A stretch of 37,641 nucleotides of DNA, from positions 1-37,641 of the forward strand of contig JANWWS010000048.1 of the NCBI GenBank assembly GCA_025055765.1, written 5' to 3'. The position numbers and the translations under genes are program-made. Under the pieces are notes generated by a model, which saw nothing but the letters and a program-made list of their open reading frames with translations, made no database searches and had not been told where the DNA came from. This document shows positions 18,173 through 37,506 of the stretch, piece after piece. Source of the DNA: Leptospiraceae bacterium (GTDB taxonomy: Bacteria > Spirochaetota > Leptospiria > Turneriellales > Turneriellaceae). Within the stretch, counting starts at the first letter, position 1; the number at the start of each line of letters is the position of its first letter.

Positions 18173-18216
18173 AGGATTTGGCTTTACAGATCAGGTGTTA
18201 CAGTCCTGAGAGGTCT

Positions 18217-19623
18217 ATGGCAAAAAAGCTTAAAGAACTTTTTGAGAGACAAAGAGAATTTCAAAAAAAACTACGCCTAAGTAGTGCCCAGGACCGCATA
18301 GCCAAGCTTGAAAAACTAAGGCTTGCTCTTGAAAACACAGCCGAGGAGCTCTACCAGGCCATGTATGACGACTATCGTAAGCCGCGCACAGAGACAGATA
18401 TTATTGAAATTGCAGCGACCGTGGGAGAGATAAACCATCTTATAAGGATTTTGCCTTCCCTAATGAAACCACAGGTGGTGGGCACCCCGCTTATGCTTTT
18501 GGGATCGCAAAGCGAGATACGCTATGAACCCAAGGGTACCTCGCTAATTATCTCCCCCTGGAACTACCCGGTTCATTTATCCTTAACTCCCCTCGCTGGT
18601 GCTATCGCTGCCGGCTGCACTGCCATTCTAAAGCCTTCCGAATATGTTCCACATACCTCTGCTTACCTGTCCCGTCTCATCGCATCAACCTTTCGCGAAG
18701 AGGAGGTAGCGGTAGTGGAAGGGGAGGCAGAGGTGGCAAAAGAACTTTTGGAGCTGCCCTTTGATCATATCTTTTTTACAGGAAGTACGGAGATAGGCAA
18801 GTATGTCATGGCTGCGGCAGCAAAGCATCTCTCCTCCGTGACCCTTGAGCTTGGAGGGAAATCGCCTGTAATTATTGATGAGTCGGCCTCCTTACCGCAG
18901 GCTGTGCGTAAGATTATGTGGGGTAAATTTGTAAATTGTGGACAAACCTGTGTAGCACCTGACTATGTGCTTTTGCCACGTTCTCTCGAGGGTGAGTTTA
19001 TCCGCCTAGCGAGGGAGGTTTTAGAAGAATTTTATGGCAAAGAGGAAGAACGAATAAAATCTCCTGACTATGCCCGGATTGTTAATAAGCGGCATTTTGA
19101 TCGTCTGAAGTCATATCTTGACGAGGCTATGGCAAAGGGAGCCAAAGTAGTAGTAGGGGGAATTACCGACGAAAATGAGCTTTATTTTGCTCCCACTATC
19201 CTAAGTCAGGTAAATCTCGATAGCAGGGTCATGAAAGAAGAAATTTTTGGTCCAATTCTGCCTCTTGTTCCCGTTAATTCCTTGCAGGGCGCTATTGATT
19301 TTGTTAATGCCAGGCCCAAGCCACTAGCTCTTTATATCTTTTCTGATAGCCAAGAGGCAACAGAAAAGGTGCTGAGGGAAACTTCCTCGGGTGGCGTGGC
19401 GGTAGATGATGTGGTCTTGCATCTAGCCAATCCATTCCTGCCTTTTGGTGGGGTGGGACCTTCTGGTATGGGGAACTATCATGGAAAATATAGTTTTCTC
19501 GCATTTAGCCATGAAAAGGCGGTTCTCCGGCAAAATAAACTCCTTGCCGTGGCTCAGATTGCTTATCCTCCGTATACGGGATTAAAAAACATAGTCCAGG
19601 GTTTGGTAAAAAAGGTCATGTAA
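18217..19623 (+). CDS. Aldehyde dehydrogenase, class 3-like
   Basis: About 468 residues; an NAD(P)-dependent aldehyde dehydrogenase oxidising aldehydes to acids. Catalytic Cys245 lies in NCGQTCVAPDY and the general-base Glu211 in LELGGKSP; the cofactor motif is FFTGSTEIGKYVM, and the start of the fold is ISPWNYPVHLSLTPLAGAIA. The C-terminal LPFGGVGPSGMGNYHGK and the short length place it near class 3 (fatty-aldehyde) enzymes, so medium- or long-chain aldehydes from lipid turnover are likely substrates. I start at ATG 18217 (GAGAGG upstream, MAKKLKELFERQREF matches the family); an in-frame TTG at 18178 would add 13 residues. It shares strand and spacing with flgJ but has no functional link. 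Confidence 0.92.
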   Translation: MAKKLKELFERQREFQKKLRLSSAQDRIAKLEKLRLALENTAEELYQAMYDDYRKPRTETDIIEIAATVGEINHLIRILPSLMKPQVVGTPLMLLGSQSEIRYEPKGTSLIISPWNYPVHLSLTPLAGAIAAGCTAILKPSEYVPHTSAYLSRLIASTFREEEVAVVEGEAEVAKELLELPFDHIFFTGSTEIGKYVMAAAAKHLSSVTLELGGKSPVIIDESASLPQAVRKIMWGKFVNCGQTCVAPDYVLLPRSLEGEFIRLAREVLEEFYGKEEERIKSPDYARIVNKRHFDRLKSYLDEAMAKGAKVVVGGITDENELYFAPTILSQVNLDSRVMKEEIFGPILPLVPVNSLQGAIDFVNARPKPLALYIFSDSQEATEKVLRETSSGGVAVDDVVLHLANPFLPFGGVGPSGMGNYHGKYSFLAFSHEKAVLRQNKLLAVAQIAYPPYTGLKNIVQGLVKKVM

Positions 19624-20832
19624 TCATAATTTTTCGAGAAGATTTGGCCAAAAGCTATCCGCGGCAAAGCGAATGGGTAGTTCATAGGCCTCGGCCAGAG
19701 TTTCAGCAATATCACTGGCGGATTTTCGTACCACGAGAGATCCATATCCTTGGGGTTTGAAGTTACGGCAATAAGTGAGAACTGGCACATGCTCCCTCGT
19801 GGGATTCTTGCTATCTATGGTGAAATCACCACCATGCGAGGAGGTGATGATGAGCATATCTTCACTAGCCATGGCACGGTATAGGCGGGGAATGTAGCTA
19901 TCGAACTCTTCTAAGAGTTTTGTAAAGGCATGAGCATCCCTTTTTTGCCAAGCTACTTCCCAGAGGTCGGAGTAACGTGCCCAAATAATTGTCTGTTCAA
20001 AGTCATTGGTGGGCGACTCTCGGATATAGTGCACGAGCTTTTCAAAAAAATCCTCGAGCGAGCTATAGGATTTTCCTGTTGTGATAGCCCGGTTTGCAAA
20101 GATAGGAGCCACCTCTCCCAAGGTTACCACAGGTATCTGAGCAAGTTCAGCACTGTCGAGTAGGGTGGGGCCGGGGGCAGGCATGGGAAAACTCTCTTTT
20201 TTACTAAAATTAATCAAGAAATCCCCAGGTTCGCCTTCGAGTGGTGCCATGCTCACCATAGCTATGTGAAAGGTGTTTGCCGTTTGCCGTACATCCATGG
20301 TTAAGAACATAAGTTGGTTACGCGTAAGAACGTTCTCATGGGCGCAGACTAAAATTTCGCTGTAAGGTAAAAGAAGTAATAAAGGCTTTCCGCTTATTAA
20401 GTGCTCGGCCCCAAATGTGTTAAGCAAATTTTCTTGCTCAGGCCATTTCATTATTAGAAAATCTCTGCGTGTATTTAATTGAAGCAGTTCTCGAAATTCA
20501 CTGCTGATGCCCAATGAAACATCGAAAAAATTTTCATTTTGTATAACCCCAGCTATTTCCCAGTGGCCACTTACCACACCTGTGCCTTCGCTTTTAAATC
20601 GGCAGCGGCTATAAAAACCGAGGGTATCAGGGGTGCGTTCCACACCTCGGATATAGGTAAGATTGCCCAGGCCAAGTTTTCCCAAATTGGGTATATTTAG
20701 CTTACCAACCTGGTCAGCTAGATGTTGCAGTGTATTGGCACCACGATGGTTTGTGCGAAAGGCATCGGGAAGCTCTCCCACCCCCAAGCCGTCAATAGTG
20801 ATTATGACTGTCTTGCGGATATTGATTTCCAT
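19624..20832 (-). CDS. Phosphopentomutase-like protein with degenerate metal site
   Basis: 402 residues from ATG 20832 (a longer frame to 21021 has no homology in the added part). The N-terminus IDGLGVGELPDAFRTN with GANTLQHLA, and SGHWEIAGV, are clearly DeoB-like (alkaline phosphatase superfamily, ribose 1-P/5-P interconversion). But key residues are altered. The nucleophile loop GKDTxTGHWE reads GTGVVSGHWE. The family's ADHGND metal site reads SSHGGD (S332, H333). DHTREYVP reads NPTREHVP (P344). The YGHRRD His is Trp or Gln (295-296). D14 and D289 may be kept. So at least three of the six ligands reported for the Bacillus enzyme look lost. It may be a paralogue with a new role or a pseudoenzyme. 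Stops 1 nt from the convergent ALDH gene. Confidence 0.8.
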   Translation of the reverse strand: MEINIRKTVIITIDGLGVGELPDAFRTNHRGANTLQHLADQVGKLNIPNLGKLGLGNLTYIRGVERTPDTLGFYSRCRFKSEGTGVVSGHWEIAGVIQNENFFDVSLGISSEFRELLQLNTRRDFLIMKWPEQENLLNTFGAEHLISGKPLLLLLPYSEILVCAHENVLTRNQLMFLTMDVRQTANTFHIAMVSMAPLEGEPGDFLINFSKKESFPMPAPGPTLLDSAELAQIPVVTLGEVAPIFANRAITTGKSYSSLEDFFEKLVHYIRESPTNDFEQTIIWARYSDLWEVAWQKRDAHAFTKLLEEFDSYIPRLYRAMASEDMLIITSSHGGDFTIDSKNPTREHVPVLTYCRNFKPQGYGSLVVRKSASDIAETLAEAYELPIRFAADSFWPNLLEKL

Positions 20833-20924
20833 ACCCAAAGATGCTGTTTCATGGCAGGCTTTCCATAAAATAAGGCTTGCCAAGCCGAATTTCTTTTTCT
20901 CCCTGGTCATTTGGTGTAACATCC

Positions 20925-21218
20925 ATGGCAGCGCGGGAATATGAGCTGACCTATATTGTTGGGGATATTGCGCCTGAGGCAGCGAAGAAGGTCCAACAAG
21001 AGGTAGAAGGGATTCTTTCAAAAAGAGAAGCGGTTATTACCTCGGTAGAGGAGTGGGGCCATCGACGGCTTTTCCATCCAGCCAAAAAGAATCAGTATGG
21101 CCACTTCTATTATGTTACCTTCAAGGCAAAACCCGAAAATATCCAGGCTATAAATGCTGACCTTCGAGTGACAGCCGATGTTGTTAAGTTTTTAATTTGT
21201 CGGGCAGATGAAGGATGA
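20925..21218 (+). CDS. rpsF: Ribosomal protein S6
   Basis: 97 residues, 30S subunit protein that pairs with S18. MAAREYELTYIVGDIAPEAA is the usual start; EEWGHRRLFHPAKKNQYGHF and a YVTFKAKPENIQ strand follow the family. The ATG at 20925 is preferred over one at 20877 that would add 16 unrelated residues. It is the first gene of an rpsF-ssb-rpsR-DUF2232-rplI-dnaB operon and overlaps ssb by 4 nt. Upstream, a small hairpin GGCTT-GCC-AAGCC (20874-20886) followed by CGAA could be a leader structure, but I cannot match it to the known S6:S18 leader motif. Confidence 0.97.
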   Translation: MAAREYELTYIVGDIAPEAAKKVQQEVEGILSKREAVITSVEEWGHRRLFHPAKKNQYGHFYYVTFKAKPENIQAINADLRVTADVVKFLICRADEG

Positions 21219-29498: not shown

Positions 29499-30587
29499 CT
29501 ATCCTCCCGACATTTTGGCAAGTCGTTCCGCTGGACCAATAATGTCAGTGACCCTTACCCCAAAGTTTTCATCAATAACTACCACCTCCCCCTTGGCAAT
29601 AAGCTTGCCGTTTACAAGTAAATCGACTGGTTCACCCGCCAATTTATCTAATTCAATGATAGAGCCTTCCCCGAGGCCTAGAATTTCCTTGACATACTTT
29701 TTAGTACGCCCGAGCTCCACGGTTAGCACCATCTGTACGTCGAGCAATAGCTCCAAATTGGGGGGGAGGTTGGAAGGGACACCACTTTGCTGAAAACTGG
29801 GGAAGGTAACGGGGGTAAAGGGTATCCCACGCGGGCCTGCCGCTACACCAGCTGCAGGTGTGCCTCCAAAATCCAAATTTAAAGGAGCAGAGCGAGCTTG
29901 GTTTTTACCAGCGCTTAAACCTTTTCCCCAGCGTACCATCGGGCTCATATCGATGTATTGGCTAAGTCGCGACGCTGGGTAACCCTCAATCGTTATATTG
30001 TACTGCAAACGGTATACTTGGTTTTCCGAAAATGGTGGGATATCTGCCGGAGAACTAAAACGTTTGGTTTCGGGGGCTGTGGGTGTTAGGTTTTCACCAA
30101 AACGGCCACTCAGGCTATTTGATAGGGAAGAGCAGAGGTTATTAATGAACTCTGAAATAGTTGAAAGATGCGCATCGTTAAGCTCGAGGGGTTCGCTGGG
30201 CTCTCCCATCATGTGCCGTGCGATCCTCTTGGCAAGATCTTGCGGCAGAGAAAACAAGGTTTTGGCTGAACCTAGGGACAGCGACACGAGAACATTACCT
30301 GCTGCTATTTGCGAACCTACGCTGGTAGCAGGTAGCTCATCAAGGCTTGTACACTGGATGTTGATGCTCTTATTTTCAAGAAAGAGCGAAAGCTGGCTAC
30401 CCGCAACCCGGACAGCTTCGTTAAAGCTGTCTTTTAAGATTTCTGCTTCTGCAGGAGATAACCCTGCGGCTGTGGTAGCACCCCCTGCAAGGCCAGAGGC
30501 AGCAAAGGGCTCTGTGGTGCCCCCTACATCTTCTGCCCCCATCAAGAGGGCATCAATTTCTTCTTGGGAAAGAGATCCGTCACCCAT
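29499..30587 (-). CDS. fliY: Flagellar switch protein FliY (FliN/CheC type)
   Basis: 362 residues. The N-terminal peptide SLSQEEIDALL resembles the EIDALL tip of FliM-type proteins. The middle is CheC-like, with one good CheY-P phosphatase motif: S142-x3-E146-x2-N149-x22-P172 (STISEFIN then P). A first copy around N56 is degenerate (E49, D53 and no following Pro). A Gly/Ala/Pro-rich linker leads to the C-terminal SpoA (FliN) domain: LLLDVQMVLTVELGRTKKYV, LGLGEGSIIELDKLAGEPVD. This is the C-ring protein that both builds the motor switch and removes phosphate from CheY-P. It follows fliL after 10 nt. Confidence 0.93.
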   Translation of the reverse strand: MGDGSLSQEEIDALLMGAEDVGGTTEPFAASGLAGGATTAAGLSPAEAEILKDSFNEAVRVAGSQLSLFLENKSINIQCTSLDELPATSVGSQIAAGNVLVSLSLGSAKTLFSLPQDLAKRIARHMMGEPSEPLELNDAHLSTISEFINNLCSSLSNSLSGRFGENLTPTAPETKRFSSPADIPPFSENQVYRLQYNITIEGYPASRLSQYIDMSPMVRWGKGLSAGKNQARSAPLNLDFGGTPAAGVAAGPRGIPFTPVTFPSFQQSGVPSNLPPNLELLLDVQMVLTVELGRTKKYVKEILGLGEGSIIELDKLAGEPVDLLVNGKLIAKGEVVVIDENFGVRVTDIIGPAERLAKMSGG

Positions 30588-37431: not shown

Positions 37432-37506
37432 CGGAGTGTAGCTCAGAGGTAGAGCGCTTCGTTCGGGACGAAGAGGTCGTTGGTTCAAATCCAATCACTC
37501 CGACCA
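37432..37506 (+). tRNA. tRNA-Pro (anticodon CGG)
   Basis: A full cloverleaf is visible. Acceptor stem CGGAGTG pairs perfectly with CACTCCG; discriminator A37503 and an encoded CCA follow. D arm GCTC-AGAGGTA-GAGC, anticodon arm CTTCG-TTCGGGA-CGAAG with anticodon CGG, G37 as usual for tRNA-Pro, variable loop AGGTC, and T arm GTTGG-TTCAAAT-CCAAT. A reading frame over the complementary strand (GVIGFEPTT-like) is a known artefact of tRNA genes and is not listed. Confidence 0.97.

What the first reader, a model, noticed from the sequence alone, without database searches (positions are those of the whole stretch)
19624..20832. Phosphopentomutase-like protein missing at least three metal ligands and altered at the nucleophile loop
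DeoB hallmarks are clear at the N-terminus, but GKDTxTGHWE reads GTGVVSGHWE, ADHGND reads SSHGGD, DHTRE reads NPTRE and the YGHRRD His is lost. I recall the Bacillus enzyme using D13, D286, H291, D327, H328 and H339 with Thr85. Loss of several ligands in an intact frame argues for a changed function, perhaps binding a sugar phosphate or acting as a regulator.
Basis: partly seen in the sequence, partly recalled or inferred. Interest (0 to 1): 0.58.

Follow-up and report, generated by a model that had tools for sequence, protein, structure and literature searches.

The report
Phosphopentomutase relative without its metals
A spirochaete gene related to the enzyme that rearranges ribose phosphate keeps the enzyme's predicted shape but has lost most of the residues that hold its metals and carry out the reaction, and relatives show the gene was kept anyway, so it probably does a different, non-chemical job.

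Summary
The 402-aa frame (19624-20832, minus) is the genome's only DeoB homologue. Against B. cereus phosphopentomutase it keeps D13 and H328 but has D286W, H291Q, D327S, H339P and, at the nucleophile, T85V: four of six metal ligands plus the nucleophile lost. All 43 reference sequences keep all six. The nearest relative (another genus, 59% identity, no gaps) has lost five of six; a second family (two genomes) has lost five of six in a different pattern; 11 of 15 fully covered order members keep all six. Synonymous sites are saturated while the frame is intact and amino acids are constrained, so this is not simple decay; a DeoB fold is predicted at high confidence. I judge it a conserved pseudoenzyme of the phosphopentomutase fold. 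The gene directly follows lexA in 6 of 15 relatives' regions (three families), but not in this genome. The non-catalytic role itself is unknown. New variant of a known kind, moderately interesting.

The parts
19624..20832 (-). deoB-like pseudoenzyme gene, 402 aa, ATG start at 20832
   Evidence: the longer mechanical TTG frame to 21021 overlaps the ORF on the opposite strand at 20877-21218 (ribosomal protein S6 by my reading, not searched), and full-length relatives start near 20832
20791..20793 (-). retained D14 (= B. cereus D13, metal ligand)
20575..20577 (-). V86 at the nucleophile position (= B. cereus T85)
   Evidence: codon read
19960..19962 (-). W291 at the metal ligand position D286
   Evidence: codon read
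19945..19947 (-). Q296 at the metal ligand position H291
   Evidence: codon read
19837..19839 (-). S332 at the metal ligand position D327
19834..19836 (-). retained H333 (= H328)
19801..19803 (-). P344 at the metal ligand position H339
   Evidence: codon read
18178..19623 (+). convergent aldehyde dehydrogenase; the same convergent neighbour occurs in the nearest relative G004 (72.8% aa identity). Neighbour only, no functional link claimed

Best explanation
The gene encodes a pseudo-phosphopentomutase: a protein with the DeoB / alkaline-phosphatase-superfamily fold that can no longer build the two-metal centre or form the phospho-threonine intermediate, kept by selection for a non-catalytic role. 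Proposed order of events: in this spirochaete order the pentose pocket diverged first (while most members kept the metal site and a serine or threonine nucleophile), then the metal site was dropped in the lineage of this genome and G004 and, probably separately, in family f3. The most likely way it works now is as a binding module (protein-protein or ligand) presented by the retained core. SHOWN: ligand and nucleophile loss, sole copy, long retention with constraint, predicted fold, pocket change in metal-intact relatives. INFERRED: no phosphopentomutase activity, binding role, two separate losses. UNKNOWN: the partner. The genome still has purine and pyrimidine nucleoside phosphorylases and deoC, so the ribose-1-phosphate to ribose-5-phosphate step must be done by something else or not at all; two long phosphohexomutase-family proteins are candidates only.
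For: Four of six ligands and the nucleophile replaced, all six present in 43 of 43 references. Only DeoB in the genome. G004, another genus, 59% identity, 402 aa with no gaps, lost D286, H291, D327, H328 and H339, to different residues; the pair groups 100/100 and sits beside metal-intact G003 at 99/95, so the shared losses look old. pS 0.788 (saturated) against pN 0.279. Simulated neutral change of 25% of sites left 0 of 500 copies without a stop. Distances from the clade base of 1.38 and 1.20 lie inside the range of the 11 metal-intact derived rows, 0.93-1.45. AlphaFold2 pLDDT 93.6, pTM 0.91; VIA Z 52 to B. cereus phosphopentomutase, rmsd 2.2-2.3 A over 389 residues. Positions R66, Q280, R319, Y383 and W395, rare outside the order (0-7% of 43), are kept in at least 14 of 15 derived rows and in G013, metal-less rows included. 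Salvage genes; phosphohexomutases.
Against: No binding partner or phenotype is known. Rows with intact ligands in the same clade show that the family as a whole may still be an enzyme. The fold model was made from an alignment of DeoB homologues, which biases it to that fold. The order-specific conserved residues are shared with the canonical-looking G013, so they may be structural or simply inherited. The AU test does not reject a single origin of all four metal-less proteins (p 0.12). G000 is the most diverged from canonical of the order (29 of 71 other invariants kept), which could mean relaxed constraint; its ligands were not lost in excess of other invariant positions (Fisher p = 1).
Confidence: 0.7

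Rival explanations
1. Still an enzyme with a rebuilt active site: a reduced or displaced metal site (D14, H333 and other residues such as E292 next to W291) supports some phosphoester chemistry other than the mutase reaction.
For: D13 and H328 equivalents, GHWE and TRE are kept; a new carboxylate, E, follows W291; most of the derived clade keeps all six ligands with S at the nucleophile, so the ancestor was probably catalytic.
Against: No histidine lies within three residues of the lost H291 or H339 positions. G004 keeps T85 but not H328; G000 keeps H328 but not T85; the two f3 proteins keep H339 but have D13E: no single reduced site is common to the four metal-less proteins.
Confidence: 0.15
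2. A relic on its way out: the enzyme became unnecessary and the gene is drifting.
For: Weak DeoB score (203.8 bits against a cut-off of 341.2); fewer canonical invariants kept than in any other order member (29 of 71); lower identity to G004 than the neighbouring aldehyde dehydrogenase (59.5% against 72.8%).
Against: Two genera keep a 402-aa frame with no indel at saturated synonymous divergence; distances are like those of metal-intact relatives; two more metal-less proteins (f3) also keep the frame, 66.7% identical to each other with pN/pS 0.26.
Confidence: 0.12
3. Misalignment, assembly error or an unrelated protein.
For: The assembly is in 50 contigs and could hold errors.
Against: Gap-free alignment through the motifs, the same kind of loss in another assembly, G004, whole-length fold match.
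Confidence: 0.01

Closest known systems
Phosphopentomutase DeoB (TIGR01696 / NF003766; B. cereus 3M8W)
   Same: Whole-length homology (E 2e-48), predicted fold (Z 52), D13, H328, GHWE and TRE.
   Different: D286, H291, D327, H339 and T85 replaced; S154, D156, R193 and R208 replaced; below the NCBIfam cut-offs; no nucleoside-salvage gene recognised next to it (flanking ORFs read as flagellar, ribosomal and replication genes by eye, plus an aldehyde dehydrogenase).
Derived DeoB-like proteins of the same spirochaete order (15 rows, e.g. G002, whose contig length fits a record titled Turneriella parva isolate SulCav)
   Same: Same clade (99/99), same order-specific residues, diverged pentose pocket.
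   Different: Eleven keep the metal ligands (ten with all six seen; G012 five of five seen) with S85; only four (G000, G004, G014, G016) have lost them.
Cofactor-independent phosphoglycerate mutase and other alkaline-phosphatase-superfamily enzymes
   Same: Metal-domain fold (Z about 23).
   Different: Much weaker match than to phosphopentomutase (Z 52).
Pseudoenzymes of metallo-hydrolase families (e.g. pseudopeptidases; PMC11266112 seen only in a search listing with the start of its abstract)
   Same: Catalytic metal ligands lost, fold and gene retained.
   Different: None of the DeoB family came up: 0 papers in the library hold both 'phosphopentomutase' and 'pseudoenzyme'.

Membership tests
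Phosphopentomutase DeoB | Full-length sequence homology and fold | tested here: met
   (fold by prediction)
Phosphopentomutase DeoB | NCBIfam equivalog cut-off (TIGR01696 341.2; NF003766 256) | tested here: not met
   203.8 and 210 bits; in the order only G013 of 18 genomes has a match over the TIGR01696 cut-off
Phosphopentomutase DeoB | Six metal ligands D13, D286, H291, D327, H328, H339 | tested here: not met
   two of six kept
Phosphopentomutase DeoB | Phosphorylatable nucleophile T85 (T or S) | tested here: not met
   V86; 43 of 43 references have T or S
Phosphopentomutase DeoB | Pentose-phosphate pocket S154, D156, R193, R208 | tested here: not met
   L, Y, M, N
Phosphopentomutase DeoB | Ribose 1-phosphate / ribose 5-phosphate mutase activity | not testable with these tools
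   needs an assay
Pfam PF01676 Metalloenzyme superfamily | Score over the gathering cut-off | tested here: met
   48.5 against 24.3 bits; shows ancestry, not metal binding
Pseudoenzyme (general kind) | Catalytic residues lost in a conserved, constrained, folded homologue | tested here: met
   (fold by prediction)
Pseudoenzyme (general kind) | Demonstrated non-catalytic function | not testable with these tools
   no partner or phenotype known

The most novel reading that the evidence does not exclude
The spirochaete order of this genome carries a universally kept, neofunctionalised DeoB branch, ancestrally in one operon with the SOS repressor lexA, whose important function is not catalysis: that is why its metal centre could be discarded twice (G000/G004 and f3, the latter still coupled to lexA) without losing the gene. 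It would be a DNA-damage-linked binding or regulatory protein built on a phosphopentomutase.
Probability: 0.25. Interest if true: 0.68.

Novelty: new variant of a known kind. Interest (0 to 1): 0.5.

Why it matters
It supplies a natural series, from canonical (G013), through pocket-changed but metal-intact, to metal-less, within one bacterial order, in which the step from enzyme to pseudoenzyme can be followed. It also warns that automatic 'phosphopentomutase' labels in this order (all but one of the full matches fall below the curated cut-off) should not be used to fill the nucleoside salvage pathway.

Tried and rejected
Second deoB elsewhere in the genome: none. PF01676 gave one other place, contig C11, a short frame not of DeoB type.

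Pathway loss as the cause: metal-less G000 keeps PyNP, PNP and deoC; G004 keeps PyNP (deoC not found, 83% complete); f3 lacks PyNP and deoC, but so does f4, which has intact ligands. No clean correlation.

Compensation by an extra phosphohexomutase: G000 and G004 have two long ones, but so do metal-intact G005, G006, G007 and G010. The two from G000 match a PDB chain named Phosphopentomutase, but not as best hit. Unresolved.

LexA operator upstream of the window gene: no palindrome shared by more than 3 of ten regions upstream of lexA genes was found (a first version of that script failed to locate the genes), so SOS control of the window gene is untested.

Single origin of metal loss: the tree separates the two pairs but the AU test does not exclude one clade (p 0.12).

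dN/dS by NG86 and YN00 gave no value for G000-G004 because synonymous sites are saturated; pN/pS is given instead.

Fisher test that ligands were lost more than other invariant positions: not significant for G000 (p = 1) or G004 (p = 0.2). The loss is part of a broad divergence of the active-site half, not a selective stripping of ligands alone.

Fold search 'viral' was not run; the second model (pLDDT 91.5) was not searched against the PDB. Residue positions were not inspected in three dimensions, as no coordinates were given out.

Full report
OBSERVATION. The minus-strand frame 19624-20832 encodes 402 aa. It matches phosphopentomutase along its whole length (NF003766 E 4.6e-62, 210 bits, cut-off 256; TIGR01696 203.8 bits, cut-off 341.2) and B. 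cereus 3M8W at E 2.1e-48. In B. cereus numbering it reads D13 kept, T85V, D286W, H291Q, D327S, H328 kept, H339P. In 43 reference sequences (33, nine other spirochaete loci, and B. cereus) all six ligands are present in 43 of 43, and position 85 is T in 37 and S in 6.

GENOME. The window is contig 13 of a 2.51-Mb, 99.4%-complete assembly. TIGR01696 finds no other DeoB. Of 100 genomes searched with the protein (the window's own included), 28 have a match: own, all 17 order mates, 0 of 30 class mates outside the order, and 10 of 52 more distant phylum members. I take the order to be Turneriellales; that name is recalled.

RELATIVES. Of the 18 order genomes, 15 cover all seven positions; G012 is cut at its N-terminus, G008 is a C-terminal half and G011 a 49-residue end, all at contig ends. 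Of the 15, 11 keep all six ligands (10 with S85, G013 with T85; G012 keeps the five that are seen) and four do not: G000 (this genome), G004 (D286F, H291R, D327P, H328N, H339T; D13 and T85 kept), G014 and G016 (D13E, D286N, H291K or N, D327S, H328N; H339 kept; S or N at 85). The tree, built without the seven columns, gives a derived clade of 15 rows (99/99); G000+G004 (100/100) are sister to metal-intact G003 (99/95), and G014+G016 (100/100) stand apart (rows G008, G011 and the two G080 fragments were left out). Two losses are the natural reading, but the AU test does not reject one clade (difference 19.9 log units, p 0.12).

POCKET CHANGE. G013 keeps 69 of 71 other positions that are at least 95% conserved in the references and is the only one of 18 order genomes with a match over the TIGR01696 cut-off. 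The other 15 rows keep 29 to 51 of 71 (G000 29, G004 37); many of the losses gather at B. cereus positions 131-133, 152-160, 193-197 and 208-214. Residues T85, R193, D286 and S154 bind ribose 5-phosphate in B. cereus (one passage of PMC11641776). So the pentose pocket has changed in metal-intact members too, and the metal-less proteins are an extreme of a lineage that had already departed from the canonical enzyme. Against a stronger claim: in G000 the ligands were not lost preferentially over other invariant positions (Fisher p = 1).

SELECTION. G000 and G004 align over 402 residues without a gap at 59% identity. pS is 0.788 (saturated), pN 0.279; f3 pair 0.787 and 0.207; a metal-intact pair (G010, G005) 0.699 and 0.158. 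In 500 simulated neutral copies with 25% of sites changed none was free of stops. Distances from the clade's base are 1.38 (G000) and 1.20 (G004) against 0.93-1.45 for the 11 metal-intact rows, and 1.70-1.79 for f3. The neighbouring aldehyde dehydrogenase is more conserved between G000 and G004 (72.8%).

STRUCTURE. AlphaFold2 on the window protein plus 36 related rows gives pLDDT 93.6 and pTM 0.91; best PDB matches are phosphopentomutases, Z 52, 389 residues, rmsd 2.2-2.3 A, 26% identity, then iPGM at Z 23 (Foldseek agrees). The f3 protein from L107 gives pLDDT 91.5, pTM 0.90. These models rest on homologous alignments and say nothing on metal binding.

CONTEXT. In 6 of 15 order-mate regions examined (G002, G006, G014, G015, G016, G017; families f1, f3, f4) the gene lies directly behind a lexA-type gene, with one base of overlap in four and 4 or 9 bases between in two, by mechanically called starts (three of the six lexA proteins were scanned, TIGR00498 over cut-off; all six). 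The linkage includes both metal-less f3 genomes. It is absent in G000, whose lexA is on another contig (C26), and in G004 and G003. Some of the other nine regions are short contigs. In the window the gene is convergent with an aldehyde dehydrogenase, as in G004.

PATHWAY. G000 retains a purine nucleoside phosphorylase and an MTA phosphorylase, a pyrimidine nucleoside phosphorylase C-terminal-domain match and deoC. Across the 15 order genomes searched, PyNP is in 9 and deoC in 8. If the window protein is inactive, the mutase step in G000 is unfilled; two long phosphohexomutase-family proteins are candidates only.

WHAT IT IS. Best supported: a conserved pseudoenzyme of the phosphopentomutase fold (0.7). 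The catalytic inference rests on ligands and nucleophile; the binding role is inference. It works, most likely, as a binding module; it is not filed as a member of DeoB in the functional sense because four defining features were tested and not met.

LITERATURE. Searches for phosphopentomutase with pseudoenzyme (0 papers), with three of four terms on inactivity and metal-binding residues (1 paper, unrelated by its title) and with Turneriella, Leptospira or spirochete listed no description of such a protein among the rows shown. 'Turneriella' with 'lexA' gave two papers on Leptospira oxidants, listing only. Passages of the Turneriella parva genome paper (PMC3746428) do not mention phosphopentomutase. 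The library holds open-licence papers only.

Noticed in passing
L038:7855-9794, L037:6932-8871, L042:8425-10456, L036:9812-11848, L043:822-2854, L044:9359-11325: lexA-type gene directly followed by the deoB-like gene, overlapping by one base in four of the six; a conserved lexA - deoB-like pair in three families of the order.
   Followed up: partly
L203-L210 (mostly the Turneriella-type genus g6): The LexA-like proteins of genus g6 score only 88-97 bits against TIGR00498 (cut-off 111), while the ten others over the cut-off score 187-202: a diverged LexA in that genus.
   Followed up: no
L001:1096-1869 (G000 contig C11): A short PF01676 metalloenzyme-superfamily frame behind an ORF that looks like the end of ftsH (my reading), with an ATDHGN motif; not hit by the DeoB model and shorter than a full iPGM.
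   Followed up: no
window 29499-30587, minus: A FliN C-terminal domain protein with a sub-threshold CheX-like match in its N-terminal half (20.7 bits against 27), recalling FliY-type switch proteins.
   Followed up: no
G013 (family f2), L006, L035: The only order member with a DeoB over the curated cut-off, together with a strong deoC and PyNP.
   Followed up: partly
window 37432-37506, plus: tRNA-Pro (cgg), the only tRNA in the window.
   Followed up: no
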